Assembly: GCF_029910215.1 (NCBI RefSeq)
Contig: NZ_CP110396.1
Span: forward strand, 1,860,001 to 1,924,000
Reading direction: 5' to 3'
DNA length: 64,000 nt
From: Paraburkholderia sp. D15
GTDB taxonomy: Bacteria; Pseudomonadota; Gammaproteobacteria; Burkholderiales; Burkholderiaceae
Below, in pieces: positions 18,716-24,694 of the stretch; position 1 is the stretch's first letter, and every line of letters starts with the position of its first letter. Made by a program: the position numbers and the translations under genes. The notes beneath the pieces were generated by a model. That model was not told the DNA's origin. It saw only the letters and a program-made list of their open reading frames with translations, and did not search any database.

Positions 18716-19225
18716 ATGACATCAGCCGAATTTGAGCAGCTCAAGGAACAAACTGCCGAGTCAGTCGCGGCGTTTGGGAAAGCGGCATACGAACGGAGAA
18801 CCATAGTTGCCGTCCGCACGTGGAAATGCATCGAAACGCAGGTACTCCGGCAACCGGGCGTCTATTGGATAGAGACGAACATGCCGGTGGAAAAACTCCA
18901 GCGCGCGATTTCGAAGGTCACGGATAAGAATCGGAAAATACGGAAGAATGCTCCTAAAGGTACTGAGATTTTGCAGCAAAAAGGCACGGACAGCTATGTC
19001 GCTTACTCGGGAACAGAGGTCAATCTTCAAAAACGGCTGGGCCAACATCTCTTCAATCGAGGGAACGCGGATACCCAAAAACTCGCATGCTTGGTTGATG
19101 AGCCACCGTTCAATGAATATAAATGGCAAGTGTCTTTTACTGTCATTAAACAGGACATTCTGAGGTACGCGGTAGAGAGCTGGTGGCGCCTGGAGCACGG
19201 TTGGCCAGCCTTCTGCCTGCGATAG
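18716..19225 (+). CDS. GIY-YIG-like nuclease domain protein (candidate)
   Basis: A 169-residue protein in a locally AT-richer region. It shows a plausible GIY-YIG order: GVYWI at 48-52, YVAYSGT at 94-100 with NLQKRLGQH (Arg107, His111), and VESWWRLEHGWPAF with Glu154. In this superfamily the two Tyr, the Arg and the late Glu are catalytic. About 40 residues are inserted between the two Tyr motifs, compared with about 10 in short members, so this is a divergent or variant member. It is the outermost gene of the island beside NUDIX and may act as a DNA endonuclease. AT-rich promoter-like sequence precedes it, but no ribosome-binding site is clear. Confidence 0.55.
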   Translation: MTSAEFEQLKEQTAESVAAFGKAAYERRTIVAVRTWKCIETQVLRQPGVYWIETNMPVEKLQRAISKVTDKNRKIRKNAPKGTEILQQKGTDSYVAYSGTEVNLQKRLGQHLFNRGNADTQKLACLVDEPPFNEYKWQVSFTVIKQDILRYAVESWWRLEHGWPAFCLR

Positions 19226-19325
19226 GTGCAATGTCTGTTTCCTTCACGCCAAGCCCGGCCAGTGCCGCATCAAGCGAGCGCGCGATCCGGCTACTTGCGA
19301 AATATGACTCCGAATGTGAAACGCT

Positions 19326-20165
19326 TTAGAATCCCGGCAGTGATTGTTGGGGCGAGCTTGGTATCGCGGCGTCATTCCAAAGCTTAGTCGCAAGGGGATG
19401 GCGGGAGAGATGGATGAGTCGGTAGAGAGGCCCCTTGTTCATGTTAACGAACAGAGGCTTAGTTTTCGCGACCTGCATCTTCGTCAAGTCGGTCACTAGA
19501 GTTTCCCAATATTCCAGGTATGCGCCCACCTGTTCACGCTTTGGTACTGCGTCGAGCCGTAGATTGTTGCGCCAGCCGGGCGCTGCCGCATCCAGTCTGG
19601 AGCTGACGAGGTTGAAGTCGCCCCCGACGTTTCGCTGGACGTCCATTACACTGAAGTGAATCAGGATATCGATATTTGGCCGAGCGGACAGCTTGCGGAT
19701 TATCTCGAAGTCTAGATGCTCGATGTTGAACGGGTCGAGGAACGCGAAGTGCAATCCCTTCGGCAGAGCATCAAGCACCCAGTCGACGGTTACGGAGGCT
19801 TTGCCCGGGTATGCTCGGACATTAGCGCCGGCGGAGCGAAGGCGCGTCGCGCATGCTTCGACACTGTCCGCGTTCGCATCGCCTATGTAAATTTCGTTAA
19901 ACGGAGCGTCCCCTTTCGCTGATATGCGCCATGCCGCTAACACTCCACCGTCCGAGATGCTTTTTGAATCACGGTTCATGACGCGCCCAGGACCCGAGAA
20001 GAGATCGATGAACGAGGCGTAAGGCCATTTCGCACGCGCCATACGCGCAGAGTCGATATAGCGTGTAAGTGCCAAGTGCTTGTTTTCCGACCAGGCACCA
20101 ACCTTCATGACCGGCAACCCATCAGCCGGGTCAATGGCGATGTCGCCTTCCTGTTTGCTGTTCAC
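19326..20165 (-). CDS. tcmP: TcmP-type three-Cys-motif partner protein, short form
   Basis: A 279-residue protein resembling the three-Cys-motif partner family (TcmP), named for its association with Gp37/Gp68 proteins. VGAWSENKHLALTRYID near residues 22-38 is the typical family opening. FIDLFSGPG (52-60) resembles SAM-binding motif I and FAFLDPF (140-146) resembles methyltransferase motif IV, suggesting a Rossmann methyltransferase-like fold; activity is unproven. The start is GTG 20165 with GGAA about 8 bases upstream. It is divergent from a second, larger TcmP, sharing a 117-base promoter region. Confidence 0.75.
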   Translation of the reverse strand: MNSKQEGDIAIDPADGLPVMKVGAWSENKHLALTRYIDSARMARAKWPYASFIDLFSGPGRVMNRDSKSISDGGVLAAWRISAKGDAPFNEIYIGDANADSVEACATRLRSAGANVRAYPGKASVTVDWVLDALPKGLHFAFLDPFNIEHLDFEIIRKLSARPNIDILIHFSVMDVQRNVGGDFNLVSSRLDAAAPGWRNNLRLDAVPKREQVGAYLEYWETLVTDLTKMQVAKTKPLFVNMNKGPLYRLIHLSRHPLATKLWNDAAIPSSPQQSLPGF

Positions 20166-20282
20166 GCTCTGTTCCCGTTTTCTAGGAGCTCAATGGGGAG
20201 ATTAAATAGTATGCCGTGATTTCGAAATTTTTACTAAAACCTGATAATCTTTCGACAGACCAAGGGCCACACAATACAGCTA
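20166..20282. promoter_or_regulatory. divergent promoter region between the two tcmP genes
   Basis: A 117-base AT-rich segment between divergent starts. GATAAT (20243-20248) is a reasonable -10 for the rightward gene; TATTTAAT-like sequence on the minus strand near 20200-20210 could serve the leftward gene. No LexA-type site is seen here. Confidence 0.4.
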
Positions 20283-21551
20283 ATGGCAAAGTCAAAAGAT
20301 AAGTATCTCTGGCAAGTCGGGAAGCCGCCGCCGATTCTTGACCAGCACAGTGCCGTAAAGCACTCGATTGTCGAAAGCTACGTTCAAAGATACATCGAGA
20401 CGGTGATGTCTCAAGCCATTATTCCGAGGCTGACTTTGTCGTTGGTCGATGGTTTCGCGGGCGGAGGGGAGTACCTCAGCGAAGCTGGTATATCGGTCGA
20501 TGGAACGCCACCTTTGATGATGCGTGCGACGCACGCGGCTCGCGCCAGCATAAACGTTGGTCGCAATGTTACGGAGCGCGAGGTCGACGCCGAATTCTTC
20601 TTCATCGAGAAACGGCGAGAGTCAGCAAGGTATCTGCGTGAACATATTGATAAGCGGCGCGCGGAAGGGACTATCGCTGACATGGACTATCAGCGAACGA
20701 CCATCCGGAATGCGAGCTTCGTAGACGAATTGCCCGGAATCGTCACGCGAATCAAACAGCGTCGCGGTGGCTTTCGCTCCATCTTTCTGCTCGACCAGTA
20801 CAGCTACAACGCCATACCGATGGGCACGCTTCGATGGTTGATGTCGGAGCTACCAGGTGCCGAGGTCATCATGACCTTCAACGTCGACTCGCTGCTAACG
20901 TACATTAGTGACAGGGAAACGAATCGGAAGGCGGTCCGCGGCGTTGACCTCGAAGGCTACATCCCGTGGGTGCACCTAGGACAAATCAAGGCGGAGCATG
21001 GTCGAGCGTCGCTGCAAAGATACGTGGCGCACGGCATTAAGGAGGAGACGGGCGCACCGTTTATGACGTTGTTCTTCGTGCGTCCCCACGCAGCGAACCC
21101 TTGGAGCTACTGGCTTGTGCATATGTCGCAGCGTTACAAGGCGCACGACGTCATGAAATCGCTCCATTGGGACCACTCAAGCGAGTTCGGACATGAGCTT
21201 GAACCAGGGCTTTTCATTCTTGGCTATGACCCAAAGCGCGATGAAGAATACAACGGCCAGTCATCACTTTTGTTCGATAAAAGTGGGGAACAACGCTGTA
21301 TTGAGACGCTGACCGACGACCTCGGTCGCCTACTTTCTAGTCAGCAGCAACCTGTCTCGGTTGCGCAGCTGTTCACGGGAAATATTTCGAACACGATCGC
21401 GGACGAAGCTCGTCTGCAAAAGGTGCTCCGTAGCCTGCATGCGGCAGGCACCATCGCGGTGTCGAACAAAGAAGACCGAGCGCGGCGGCCGTCAAAGCTG
21501 TATCGACCGACCGACATCATCGAATACTCCCGACAACTGCGGTTCACCTAA
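20283..21551 (+). CDS. tcmP: TcmP-type three-Cys-motif partner protein, long form
   Basis: A 422-residue protein of the larger TcmP type. KYLWQVGKPPPILDQHSAVKH (residues ~7-27) is followed by LVDGFAGGGEY (54-64), a motif I-like glycine-rich loop. FLLDQYSYN near residue 178 occupies the place of a methyltransferase motif IV but lacks the DPPY form. The last ~70 residues read like a winged helix (VSVAQLFTGN... LQKVLRSLHAAGTI). It converges with the three-Cys gene, leaving only 10 bases between stops. Having two TcmP proteins with one three-Cys protein is unusual. Biochemical role unknown. Confidence 0.75.
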   Translation: MAKSKDKYLWQVGKPPPILDQHSAVKHSIVESYVQRYIETVMSQAIIPRLTLSLVDGFAGGGEYLSEAGISVDGTPPLMMRATHAARASINVGRNVTEREVDAEFFFIEKRRESARYLREHIDKRRAEGTIADMDYQRTTIRNASFVDELPGIVTRIKQRRGGFRSIFLLDQYSYNAIPMGTLRWLMSELPGAEVIMTFNVDSLLTYISDRETNRKAVRGVDLEGYIPWVHLGQIKAEHGRASLQRYVAHGIKEETGAPFMTLFFVRPHAANPWSYWLVHMSQRYKAHDVMKSLHWDHSSEFGHELEPGLFILGYDPKRDEEYNGQSSLLFDKSGEQRCIETLTDDLGRLLSSQQQPVSVAQLFTGNISNTIADEARLQKVLRSLHAAGTIAVSNKEDRARRPSKLYRPTDIIEYSRQLRFT

Positions 21552-21561
21552 GCCGACGTGG

Positions 21562-22320
21562 TCAGGTTAGTGGAATGGACAGACCTCGTTCAGGCATATC
21601 GTCCCAGGTACGCCCTTCAAGAAGCCGGCCGTTGGCTGTCTTGGAGCGGCGTACACCGTCGCTCCCCCACGTGCCCCATTGCTTGAAGAAGAACTTCACG
21701 CCTCGCTCCTCGCACTGAACCTTGACGTTCTGTACCCAGTCTTCCCGCATCGGGCGTGCCTTCGGACCAGATTCTCCGCCGACAATTACCCAATCAATGT
21801 TCTCGAGATTTAGGGTACCCAAGTCCTCGAGCAGTGGTTCGACTGACAAGAAACGAACGCCGCCTTCCACGCGACGCAGCTCGTCAATTCTCGGTAGGCC
21901 GTGCCTGCGGTCCTCGACGGTGACGCCAAGCCACGCATTTGCTGGTATCTCTCGACGGCTGCAATAGGACGCCAAGCGCTCTGCTCGCTTCGTGAGTATC
22001 TGAAAGGTGTGTTGAGGGCATGCTCGAATCGAATCGAACACCTGCGTGATGTAGGCGTCAGACACAGAGCGGTGAAACAGGTCCGACATCGAATTGACGA
22101 AGTAGACCGTCGGGTTTTTCCGCTTCAGTGGCTCGTCCAAACGATTGGGCAGAATGGTCAGCCGGAAGCCATTTTCATAGCCTGGAGTTCCCATGGCATG
22201 CAAACGTTTTGCCATGCCTTCGGCGTAGCAGTTTTTGCAGCCTTTAGAGATTTTTGTGCAACCGACAGTCGGGTTCCACGTACGCTCCGTCCACTCAATT
22301 TTGCTTTGCCCGCCGCTCAT
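21562..22320 (-). CDS. Gp37/Gp68-family (DUF5131) protein with three-cysteine radical-SAM-like motif
   Basis: A 252-residue member of the phage Gp37/Gp68 family. Cysteines 21, 28 and 31 form CX6CX2C (WNPTVGCTKISKGCKNCYAE), the three-Cys motif that gave TcmP its name and that suggests a 4Fe-4S cluster as in radical SAM enzymes. Barrel-like conserved strands follow: VNSMSDLFH, ILTKR, WLGVTVE, FLSVEPLLE, VIVGGESG and FFFKQWG. ATG 22320 is preceded by AGAGG at about 8 bases; a TTG at 22335 is less likely. It has a long (about 146-base) predicted leader with a LexA box and a hairpin upstream. The reaction is unknown. Confidence 0.82.
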   Translation of the reverse strand: MSGGQSKIEWTERTWNPTVGCTKISKGCKNCYAEGMAKRLHAMGTPGYENGFRLTILPNRLDEPLKRKNPTVYFVNSMSDLFHRSVSDAYITQVFDSIRACPQHTFQILTKRAERLASYCSRREIPANAWLGVTVEDRRHGLPRIDELRRVEGGVRFLSVEPLLEDLGTLNLENIDWVIVGGESGPKARPMREDWVQNVKVQCEERGVKFFFKQWGTWGSDGVRRSKTANGRLLEGRTWDDMPERGLSIPLT

Positions 22321-22402
22321 TGTTCGACCTCTCAATTAGTTTGCGATTTTATCCAGCTTCCCGTGGCTGCTACGAAATAGCCATACTTTCGTCATGTGGT
22401 CG

Positions 22403-22432
22403 CGTTTGTCGCAAGCTTCCGCGCGACAAACG
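22403..22432 (-). promoter_or_regulatory. perfect hairpin in the leader of the three-Cys gene
   Basis: Arms CGTTTGTCGC (22403-22412) and GCGACAAACG (22423-22432) are exact reverse complements around a 10-base loop. The element lies between the predicted promoter and the start of the three-Cys gene, so it could be an operator, an RNA structure or an attenuator. Confidence 0.55.
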
Positions 22433-22472
22433 AGAGAAAAATGGAACACGCATCCGCGTCAGGCACCTAAGC

Positions 22473-22504
22473 AGTATAAAGATCGAGACTGTATATCTAT
22501 ACAG
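22473..22504 (-). promoter_or_regulatory. LexA (SOS) box over the predicted promoter of the three-Cys gene
   Basis: CTGTATATCTATACAG (22489-22504) is a perfect 7-base inverted repeat and matches the CTGT-N8-ACAG consensus known for LexA of E. coli and beta-proteobacteria. On the minus strand TATACT (22478-22473) can act as -10. The box then covers the spacer and a weak -35, the expected position for repression. No plus-strand gene would use it. Confidence 0.6.
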
Positions 22505-22787
22505 TGGATGAGTAAATACGATTGGGCGATAGCGGGAAATAGATTCGGTCCATGCGTCGGCTAGATAGTCCCGGGAAAGTGCTTCCGGCCAATGCCAGCA
22601 AGGCTTTTGAAACAAAACAAAGAACGCGCATCTCCAGCAAACATCTCGGGCGTGGGACGCTGCGATGGCGCGCAAAGCAAGAATTGGGGGCAACCGCAGA
22701 CAAAGGGGCGCTTGGAAATGCTCCAGCGTCACTTTGTCATTGATTCTGGTTGTGCCTTGTTAAGTAAGCTCAGCGGCTAATGAACGC

Positions 22788-22822
22788 GCCTCGTAACCAA
22801 ACCTAACTGAGGCCTCGTAACC
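22788..22822. repeat. 11-base direct repeat downstream of glmS
   Basis: GCCTCGTAACC occurs at 22788-22798 and 22812-22822, 24 bases apart, about 43-77 bases after the glmS stop. It sits where Tn7-like elements commonly insert, but no matching copy was found at the other island edge. Confidence 0.4.
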
Positions 22823-22864
22823 GAGAATAATGCAACTCAGCATGCCAAAGGTGAAACATTCCCC

Positions 22865-24694
22865 CTACTCCACCGTCACCGACTTCGCCAGATTCCTCGG
22901 CTTATCAATATCCGTCCCTCTAGCCAGCGCCGCATGAAACGCCAGCAACTGCATCGGAATCGTGTGCAGGATCGGCGAAAGCAACCCGTAGTACTCCGTC
23001 AGCCGGATCACCTCCATATCCGCACTCGGCGCAATCCCGCAATCGATATCGGCAAACACGAACAGTTTTCCGCTACGTGCGGAAACCTCGTGCATGTTCG
23101 ACTTCAGCTTTTCCAGCAACCGGTCATTAGGCGCCACCGCCACCACAGGCATCTGATCGCTGATCAACGCCAGCGGTCCATGTTTCAATTCACCCGCCGC
23201 GTACGCCTCGGCATGAATGTACGAAATCTCCTTCATCTTCAGCGCGCCTTCCAGCGCAACCGGATAATGCATACCGCGACCAAGGAACAGAATATTGTCC
23301 TTACGCGTCAACAATTCCGACCAAGCCATAATTTGAGGCTCAAGCGCAAGTACCCGGCTCATCGCATCGGGCAGATGACGGAGCGCACGCAAATGCATCT
23401 GCTCATCCGCGTCGGAAAGCCGCGAGCGAACCTGCGCGAGTGTCAATGCAAGAAGAAATAGCGCCACGAGCTGCGTCGTGAAAGCCTTCGTGGACGCCAC
23501 GCCAATTTCAATCCCGGCCCGCGTGATGAAATTAAGCTGACATTCACGAATGAGCGCACTGCTCGGTACATTGCAAATAGCCAGCGTCTTCAACATCTGC
23601 TGTTGCTTCGCGACCTGCACCGCGCCGAGCACATCCGCCGTCTCTCCGCTTTGCGACACCGCTACCACCAACGTATTCGGATTTGCCACACTCTCGCGGT
23701 AACGGTACTCGCTCGCTATTTCGACATTCACCGGCAATTGCGCCAGACTTTCTATCCAGTACTTCGCCGTCAGTGCAGCATGAAAGCTCCCGCCGCACGC
23801 CAATAGCAGTACCGAATCGACGCTATTGAAAACGCGCCATGCGTCGTCGCCGAACAGTTCGGGCATGATCGACGTCACGTCCTGCAAGGTGTCGGCCACG
23901 GCCCGCGGCTGTTCGAAGATCTCCTTCTGCATGTAGTAGCGATACAGGCCGAGATCGGCCGCGCCGCTGTGCGCAGCCACCGTATGCACTTGACGCTCGA
24001 CGCGCTGACCATTCGAGTCGACCACCCAGTGCCGATGCAATTGAATGTCGGCCACATCGCCGTTCTCCAGATAAGCGATGCGATCCGTCACGGACGCGAG
24101 TGCAATTGCATCCGACGCCAGAAAGTTCTCGCCTTCGCCGACACCGACAACAAGCGGCATGCCATCGCGCGCGCCGACCAGTCGATGCGGTTCGTCGCGA
24201 CACAGCACGGCAATCGCGTAGCTGCCGCGCAACTTCTTCACCGCTTGCTGAACCGCATCGAACAGGTCGCCGTTGTACAGATAGTCGATCAGATGCGCGA
24301 TCGCCTCGCTATCCGTCTGGCTGGAAAAGACGTAACCATGTTCCTGCAGCATCGCGCGAAGCTCGTCGCTGTTTTCGATAATGCCGTTGTGCGACAGCGC
24401 GATTCGCGGCGAGTCGGCATCGGGCGAAAAATGCGGATGCGCATTCGTGGTGACCGGCTTGCCATGCGTGGCCCAGCGCGTATGGGCGATGCCGGTATAG
24501 CCGGACAACGCGTGCTTCGCGATCTCGTCGCGCAGATTCGCCACACGATCGACGCTACGCGCGCGAACAAGGCGTCGATCCTGATACACCGCGACGCCGC
24601 ACGAGTCGTAACCCCGATATTCGAGCCGCTTGAGCCCATCAACCAGGTCGGGAAGGATGTTCCGCTGCGCCACGGCGCCGACGATGCCACACAT
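22865..24694 (-). CDS. glmS: glucosamine-fructose-6-phosphate aminotransferase (isomerizing)
   Basis: A 609-residue GlmS. It converts fructose 6-phosphate and glutamine into glucosamine 6-phosphate, the first step of amino-sugar synthesis for peptidoglycan and LPS. The N-terminal glutaminase domain begins with the nucleophile Cys2 ([10 protein letters not shown]); [13 protein letters not shown] and [10 protein letters not shown] are typical. Two SIS isomerase domains follow ([18 protein letters not shown]). The C-terminus [11 protein letters not shown] is the sequence recognised by TnsD at attTn7. GGAG lies 8 bases upstream of the start. It diverges from an lrp-like gene with palindromes between. 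Confidence 0.97.

What the first reader, a model, noticed from the sequence alone, without database searches (positions are those of the whole stretch)
18716..22320. Four-gene island with two TcmP proteins, one three-Cys Gp37/Gp68 protein and a GIY-YIG-like nuclease
TcmP and the three-Cys Gp37/Gp68 family are known to co-occur, but their function is not established to my knowledge. Here two different TcmP proteins flank the system, with one convergent on the three-Cys gene by 10 bases, and a nuclease candidate is added at the edge. A methyltransferase-like partner, a radical-SAM-like enzyme and a nuclease together suggest nucleic-acid modification with restriction, that is, a phage-defence system. 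The system interpretation is inference.
Basis: partly seen in the sequence, partly recalled or inferred. Interest (0 to 1): 0.8.

Follow-up and report, generated by a model that had tools for sequence, protein, structure and literature searches.

The report
Mobile methyltransferase and radical-SAM gene trio
A small mobile gene cluster in a bacterium pairs two different methyltransferase-like proteins with one radical-SAM-like enzyme; it probably chemically alters DNA or RNA and may protect against viruses, but what it does has not been shown.

Summary
The four ORFs are real, at the stated coordinates. Three form the unit; the fourth does not. TcmP-A, TcmP-B and DUF5131 (19326-22335) are a recurrent mobile module: 15 of 33 TcmP-bearing genomes of the family have one short 'DP' TcmP, one long 'DQ' TcmP and a single DUF5131. 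DUF5131 lies near TcmP in 32 of 33 family loci, 18 of 18 other phylum loci and 19 of 20 viral loci. The GIY-YIG-like ORF1 lies outside the shared unit, is in 1 of 144 genus genomes and scores below Pfam's cut-off, so 'modification plus restriction' is not supported. Predicted folds: DUF5131 is nearest spore photoproduct lyase, a radical-SAM enzyme; TcmP-B is nearest RlmJ, an rRNA N6-adenine methyltransferase. DUF5131 matches PADLOC's untested phage-defence candidates PDC-M30/M41, and genes beside such modules include Kiwa, CBASS, DarTG and Lamassu-type matches (control). Best reading: two TcmP adaptors share one radical-SAM engine that modifies nucleic acid, probably in defence. Linkage, mobility and predicted folds are computed; chemistry, substrate and defence are inferred. 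New variant of an uncharacterised candidate.

The parts
19326..20165 (-). TcmP-A: short 'DP'-type three-Cys-motif partner, 279 aa, methyltransferase-like by homology to TcmP-B
   Evidence: TIGR04474 147 bits; G58, D96, D144-P145 invariant and K29-H30, P59, G60 nearly invariant in 62 sequences; motif IV DP[FY] in the 120 listed relatives of 525; hhalign to TcmP-B 96.8%
20283..21551 (+). TcmP-B: long 'DQ'-type TcmP, 422 aa, RlmJ-like methyltransferase domain plus C-terminal GMT-like wHTH
21562..22335 (-). DUF5131 (phage Gp37/Gp68, three-Cys protein), radical-SAM-type barrel; likely ATG start at 22320 (252 aa)
20166..20282 (.). Divergent TcmP-A/TcmP-B intergenic region; probable shared promoter/operator
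   Evidence: alignment of 9 same-layout loci, well conserved in all but L054; function inferred
20219..20228 (.). Palindrome ATTTCGAAAT, candidate operator
   Evidence: only copy in the 64 kb window, 0.06 expected by chance; between TcmP-A and TcmP-B in 7 of 9 same-layout loci
19296..22695 (.). Extent of DNA shared with P. ginsengiterrae locus L007, in a different chromosomal setting: approximate mobile unit
   Evidence: 90.6% over 3410 columns, flanks not matching
18716..19225 (+). ORF1, GIY-YIG-like protein, 169 aa; neighbour, not part of the unit
   Evidence: PF01541 15.3 bits, below cut-off; 4 relatives besides itself in a 5.8-billion-protein set searched by shared words; 1 of 144 genus genomes; outside 19296-22695
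22865..24694 (-). glmS-like gene whose 3' side is the insertion site; same neighbour in locus L059
   Evidence: module immediately downstream here and in L059; gene named from its sequence by recall

Best explanation
It is a mobile three-gene nucleic-acid-modification module. Two RlmJ-like methyltransferase paralogues of different class (short DP-type TcmP-A; long DQ-type TcmP-B with a winged-helix domain) share one spore-photoproduct-lyase-like radical-SAM enzyme (DUF5131). Proposed mechanism: each TcmP binds and methylates, or only presents, a nucleotide in its own DNA or RNA target; DUF5131 then performs radical chemistry at that nucleotide. The two TcmPs give two target specificities, or two alternative routes, to one shared engine. 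The outcome is most likely protection against phage or other foreign DNA. Shown by computation: families, predicted folds, motif conservation, near-obligate linkage of TcmP to DUF5131, mobility, purifying selection, defence-type neighbours. Inferred: catalytic activity, substrate, order of steps, anti-phage outcome.
Against: The searches found no functional study of these families (listings and passages only). Motif IV is DPFN or DQYS, not the D-P-S-Y of the genome's own RlmJ, so N6 methylation is not implied and TcmP-B may only bind. TcmP-A was not folded, and its profile match to one RlmJ sequence was poor (probability 3.6%, E 0.012). The cluster spacing C-x6-C-x2-C is not the common C-x3-C-x2-C (recalled), and 14 of 111 gathered DUF5131 relatives did not show it. 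One plasmid TcmP had no DUF5131 listed within 6 kb and one family locus has only a TcmP fragment (L072). The window's own immediate neighbours are a NUDIX gene and glmS; the NUDIX protein has only a weak PADLOC match (PDC-S07, 30.9 bits). The defence enrichment was not tested formally. Strong constraint on DUF5131 also fits a repair role.
Confidence: 0.45

Rival explanations
1. DNA (or RNA) lesion repair cassette: DUF5131 is a spore-photoproduct-lyase-like repair enzyme and TcmP proteins recognise or prepare the lesion; it spreads on mobile elements because damage tolerance is useful to them and their hosts.
For: Nearest fold is a DNA repair lyase; in 74 of 80 viral DUF5131 loci no TcmP-like ORF was found in the fetched stretch; very low dN/dS.
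Against: Defence-type neighbours and patchy presence (33 of 398 genomes) are less expected of repair; a methyltransferase partner is not known for spore photoproduct lyase (recalled).
Confidence: 0.2
2. Element-borne nucleic-acid hypermodification: the genes mark the DNA or RNA of prophages and plasmids so that it escapes host restriction, and are stranded in chromosomes.
For: 20 viral-contig loci, 60 plasmid records, 29 of them predicted conjugative; varied chromosomal sites.
Against: Some copies sit next to other defence-type genes, and the window's copy lies between chromosomal-type genes.
Confidence: 0.15
3. Modification-restriction system of the first reader: methyltransferase and radical-SAM enzyme modify, ORF1 nuclease cuts.
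For: ORF1 is a plausible GIY-YIG-like protein next to the module and shares its low GC3.
Against: ORF1 found in 1 of 398 family and 1 of 144 genus genomes; outside the shared unit; no recurrent nuclease among the neighbours examined.
Confidence: 0.05
4. Toxin-antitoxin or addiction module, with one TcmP as antidote.
For: Mobile and compact, with stops of TcmP-B and DUF5131 10-11 bases apart or overlapping.
Against: In 3 of 15 three-gene loci TcmP-A is broken while TcmP-B and DUF5131 are open (L043, L044, L058), and each TcmP class occurs alone with DUF5131, so neither TcmP is a required antidote to the other.
Confidence: 0.07

Closest known systems
PADLOC candidate systems PDC-M30 and PDC-M41
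   Same: DUF5131 scores 368 and 360 bits to the B components; TcmP-B is best to M30A and TcmP-A best to M41A
   Different: Going by the component names each candidate is one TcmP plus one DUF5131 (PADLOC's rules were not seen); here both TcmP classes share one DUF5131, and the A-component scores are weak (39.9 and 26.4 bits)
Spore photoproduct lyase (radical SAM)
   Different: 14% identity; C-x6-C-x2-C cluster motif; partnered with TcmP in this module
RlmJ, 23S rRNA A2030-N6 methyltransferase
   Different: Motif IV DP[FY] or DQY instead of D-P-[P/S]-Y; wHTH domain in TcmP-B; patchy and mobile
NCBIfam radical SAM mobile pair protein A (TIGR04471)
   Same: DUF5131 matches at 95.5 bits over residues 21-219
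   Different: Far below the 355-bit cut-off

Membership tests
TcmP (TIGR04474) | score over curated cut-off (53 bits) | tested here: met
   147 and 188 bits
DUF5131 / Gp37-Gp68 (PF07505) | score over curated cut-off (28.9 bits) | tested here: met
   354.7 bits, full length
PDC-M30 (PADLOC) | B component DUF5131 | tested here: met
   PDLC04569 368 bits
PDC-M30 (PADLOC) | A component TcmP | tested here: inconclusive
   TcmP-B 39.9 bits, E 6.4e-11; PADLOC's own thresholds not available
PDC-M41 (PADLOC) | B component DUF5131 | tested here: met
   PDLC04639 360.3 bits
PDC-M41 (PADLOC) | A component TcmP | tested here: inconclusive
   TcmP-A 26.4 bits, E 1.1e-6
PDC-M30/M41 (PADLOC) | anti-phage activity | not testable with these tools
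   PDC systems described as not experimentally validated (PMC10855318, passages)
Radical SAM superfamily | radical-SAM type barrel fold | tested here: met
   top fold matches of the predicted model are radical SAM enzymes
Radical SAM superfamily | three cluster-type Cys after the first strands | tested here: met
   C26, C33, C36 in 93, 93 and 92% of 111 relatives, between strand 23-25 and helix 37-47; also invariant in the 45, but those were picked by this pattern
Radical SAM superfamily | common C-x3-C-x2-C spacing | tested here: not met
   C-x6-C-x2-C in 97 of 111; other spacings are known in the superfamily (recalled)
Radical SAM superfamily | [4Fe-4S] cluster and reductive SAM cleavage | not testable with these tools
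   needs purified protein
Spore photoproduct lyase | lyase activity and H-donor Cys | not testable with these tools
   activity needs an assay; coordinates of the superposition were not available
RlmJ-type N6-adenine methyltransferase | fold | tested here: met
RlmJ-type N6-adenine methyltransferase | motif IV D-P-[P/S]-Y | tested here: not met
   DP[FY] in 120 of 120 and DQY in 120 of 120 listed relatives; DPSY in the own RlmJ, DPPY recalled
GIY-YIG nuclease (PF01541), ORF1 | score over curated cut-off (22.6 bits) | tested here: not met
   15.3 bits, E 0.025
GIY-YIG nuclease, ORF1 | ordered catalytic residues Y, Y, R, H, E | tested here: inconclusive
   Y50, Y94, R107, H111, E154 invariant in 5 of 5; the gap between the two tyrosine motifs is longer than usual (recalled)
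Restriction-modification | conserved cognate endonuclease | tested here: not met
   ORF1 in 1 of 398 and 1 of 144 genomes; no nuclease recurs among neighbours examined

The most novel reading that the evidence does not exclude
TcmP/DUF5131 is a form of bacterial immunity that works by radical chemistry on nucleic acid: one spore-photoproduct-lyase-like engine is served by interchangeable RlmJ-like adaptor methyltransferases of two classes (DP and DQ), and carrying both classes with one engine widens the range of targets.
Probability: 0.28. Interest if true: 0.87.

Novelty: new variant of a known kind. Interest (0 to 1): 0.55.

Why it matters
TcmP and DUF5131 are widespread, mobile and unexplained. 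The evidence turns 'three-Cys protein and partner' into a testable enzyme pair: a spore-photoproduct-lyase-like radical-SAM protein plus RlmJ-like methyltransferases. It separates two TcmP classes by a strict motif (DP versus DQ) and shows that one DUF5131 is commonly linked to both. If the module is defensive, radical chemistry on nucleic acid would be an unusual immune mechanism; if it is repair or hypermodification, a PADLOC label now in use would need correction.

Tried and rejected
Restriction partner: ORF1 and other neighbours were checked and no recurrent nuclease was found among those examined. ORF1 relatives in viral contigs: none. ORF1 in solved structures: none, alone or as alignment. 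Sequence-level PDB relatives of TcmP and DUF5131: none credible. Profile match of TcmP-A to a single RlmJ: poor. PHROGs: DUF5131 matches phrog_2045 of unknown function; TcmP-A none, TcmP-B one match at E 0.25. tRNA-linked insertion: no tRNA in the window. Repeats in and around the unit: only short, imperfect ones. Promoter scan: 2 promoter-like sites, shuffles 2.4 on average. Empty site: glmS loci of two relatives (L216, L217) align to the window at glmS and its AsnC side but not beyond the glmS end towards the module; the NUDIX side aligns in other genomes (L218, L219), so no clean empty site was obtained. Papers: searches listed no functional study of TcmP or DUF5131; most of the 394 papers (30 listed) use the abbreviation for other things; PMC7387457 and PMC5463345 appeared in listings and were not opened. 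The library lacks preprints and most subscription journals.
Full report
Observation. The four ORFs are present as described. TcmP-A is 19326-20165 (-), TcmP-B 20283-21551 (+), DUF5131 21562-22335 (-; the likely ATG start is 22320) and ORF1 18716-19225 (+). Families: TIGR04474 147 and 188 bits, PF07505 355 bits, PF22560 wHTH 44 bits in TcmP-B, GIY-YIG 15.3 bits in ORF1, below its 22.6 cut-off. TcmP-B and DUF5131 are convergent with 10 bases between them. The window lies in an 8.3 Mb, three-contig genome. That genome has three DUF5131 genes and TcmP over the cut-off only here.

The unit. DNA of P. ginsengiterrae matches the window from 19296 to 22695 at 90.6% and stops there, in a neighbourhood of other genes. 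ORF1 is outside. On the right the unit abuts the region downstream of glmS; window 22689-22842 resembles the sequence downstream of glmS in another locus (L057, 73%). Locus L059 (contig length ties it to L009, Burkholderia sp. BCC1644) carries its own diverged copy beside the same glmS-AsnC pair. In L057 glmS lies about 6.7 kb beyond the module. The island is poorer in G+C: 51-58% against 60-67% on its left side, while the right side is mixed at 56-66%; GC3 is 0.58-0.65 against mostly 0.7-0.9. ORF1 shares that composition but occurs in 1 of 398 family and 1 of 144 genus genomes; a word-based search of 5.8 billion proteins gave itself and four relatives. Their surroundings could not be read.

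Conservation. In 398 family genomes, 33 have TcmP over the cut-off; I fetched all 33 neighbourhoods (L042-L073 and the window) and, as an extra, one below the cut-off (L075, a TcmP fragment without DUF5131, not counted here). DUF5131 is within the fetched stretch in 32 of 33; the exception, L072, has a TcmP fragment. In most it is adjacent; in L052, L053 and L055 it lies 1-3 kb off. Both a short and a long TcmP with one DUF5131 occur in 15 of 33: seven with the window's layout (L054, L056-L060, window), seven with DUF5131 and TcmP-B in one direction and TcmP-A divergent (L042-L047, L066), and one with all three in one direction (L049). The rest: DUF5131 plus one long TcmP in 3, plus two long TcmPs in 3, plus one diverged long TcmP in 1, plus a short TcmP in 10, and the L072 fragment. 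TcmP-A is broken while the other two are open in L043, L044 and L058, and all three are broken in L066; sequencing error is not excluded. Across 299 phylum genomes, 19 have TcmP, the window's among them; all 18 others have DUF5131 beside it and 2 of 18 have a second TcmP. So two TcmP classes with one DUF5131 are common in this family and rare in the wider sample.

Viruses and plasmids. Of 20 viral-contig TcmP-B relatives, 19 have DUF5131 near; the twentieth ends at the contig edge. Conversely, of 80 viral DUF5131 loci (the best 80 of 112), 6 have a TcmP-like ORF in the fetched stretch. DUF5131 relatives are in 159 of 50,697 phage records (TcmP was not looked for there), TcmP-B relatives in 60 of 72,556 plasmid records, 29 predicted conjugative. 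Of two plasmid records opened, one has integrase, DUF5131 and TcmP in a row; the other has TcmP behind an IS21 element with no DUF5131 listed within 6 kb, from an incomplete gene table.

Two TcmP classes. Motif IV reads DP[FY] in 120 of 120 listed TcmP-A relatives and DQY in 120 of 120 listed TcmP-B relatives (the best 120 of 525 and of 551). In 44 TcmP frames of other loci the long ones mostly read DQ (DQY, in a few DQC or DQF) and the short ones DP. Exceptions and gaps: L254 (339 codons) reads DQY, L245 (366 codons) seems to read DPF, and the second TcmP of L055 gave no clear read. The K-H motif was found in 38 of those 44. Neither class has RlmJ's D-P-[P/S]-Y, so the target atom cannot be inferred.

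Selection and regulation. Between the window and seven same-layout loci, dN/dS is 0.03-0.04 for DUF5131, 0.07-0.08 for TcmP-A and 0.07-0.15 for TcmP-B; pairs with saturated synonymous sites are left out (two for TcmP-A, one for DUF5131), and the others except P. ginsengiterrae have dS 1.2-2.1, so these are rough. Pairwise identities of the three proteins correlate (0.83-0.95 over 28 non-independent pairs). The 117-base space between the divergent TcmP genes is well conserved in 8 of 9 same-layout loci (not L054) and holds the palindrome ATTTCGAAAT at 20219-20228, the only copy in 64 kb (0.06 expected). It lies in that space in 7 of 9; L059 has it only inside TcmP-A, L054 not at all, and L066, of another layout, has one copy elsewhere. 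It is a candidate operator, perhaps for TcmP-B's winged helix (inference).

Defence context. DUF5131 scores 368 and 360 bits to PADLOC PDC-M30B and PDC-M41B; TcmP-B is best to PDC-M30A (39.9 bits) and TcmP-A to PDC-M41A (26.4 bits). These are 'guilt-by-embedding' candidates, not validated; PDC-M30 was predicted in 32 of 100 P. aeruginosa strains, 68.8% of which were resistant (PMC10855318, passages; also PMC11878078, passages). In Sinorhizobium meliloti a TcmP gene (SMa2243) is listed next to the Hna defence gene in a transcriptome table (PMC12445080, passages). The nearest two genes of at least 120 aa on each side of 31 of the 32 non-window loci (L065 left out for want of a control; L060 gave two; 122 proteins; some loci are related) matched PDC-M65A (2), mad3 and mad8 (2 each), KwaA, KwaB, CBASS cyclase and 2TM effector, DarT, DarG, LmuA, LmuC, HmaC, PDC-S25, PD-T4-2_A and others at E up to 1e-10. 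The control, 119 of 120 proteins from 31 other places of the same genomes (one long protein dropped for size), matched type II methyltransferase models and otherwise, among those listed, mostly UvrD-type helicase models, plus RTasHel and IetA. Only the first 25 of 51 and of 74 matching families are listed, without protein names, so no formal test was made. The window's own neighbours are a NUDIX gene, with a weak PDC-S07 match (30.9 bits), and glmS.

Conclusion. The best-supported reading is a mobile nucleic-acid-modification module in which two methyltransferase-type adaptors share one radical-SAM engine, probably for defence. Repair and element-borne hypermodification remain open. The nuclease is a neighbour.

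Noticed in passing
window 20219-20228: Palindrome ATTTCGAAAT, the only one in the window, in the conserved divergent TcmP-A/TcmP-B region, kept in 7 of 9 same-layout loci.
   Followed up: partly
L043, L044, L058, L066: TcmP-A is split or interrupted in 4 of 15 three-gene loci, in 3 of them with TcmP-B and DUF5131 still open; sequencing error not excluded for the frameshifts.
   Followed up: partly
window 19230-19328: A short ORF of about 32 codons (read by eye) begins just after ORF1 and runs over the left edge of the shared unit (about 19296), as if a second gene of an ORF1 locus had been truncated by the insertion.
   Followed up: no
L002, L003 (G000 C2 302987-303853, C3 489378-490229): Two further DUF5131 genes in the same genome, away from any TcmP over the cut-off; L002 has an integrase-like ORF next to it (named by eye).
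   Followed up: partly
L056 4236-7645, L057 11497-15443: A PDC-M65-type gene pair lies next to the TcmP module in two genomes, on opposite sides; family matched in L056, L057 by clustering with it.
   Followed up: no
L309 4235-7314: Plasmid cassette of site-specific integrase, DUF5131 and TcmP near mercury-resistance genes in Stutzerimonas stutzeri.
   Followed up: no
phages collection (50,697 records): DUF5131 relatives are frequent in Gordonia and Mycobacterium phages (49 records each of 159), annotated mostly as hypothetical in the rows listed; their TcmP status was not checked.
   Followed up: no
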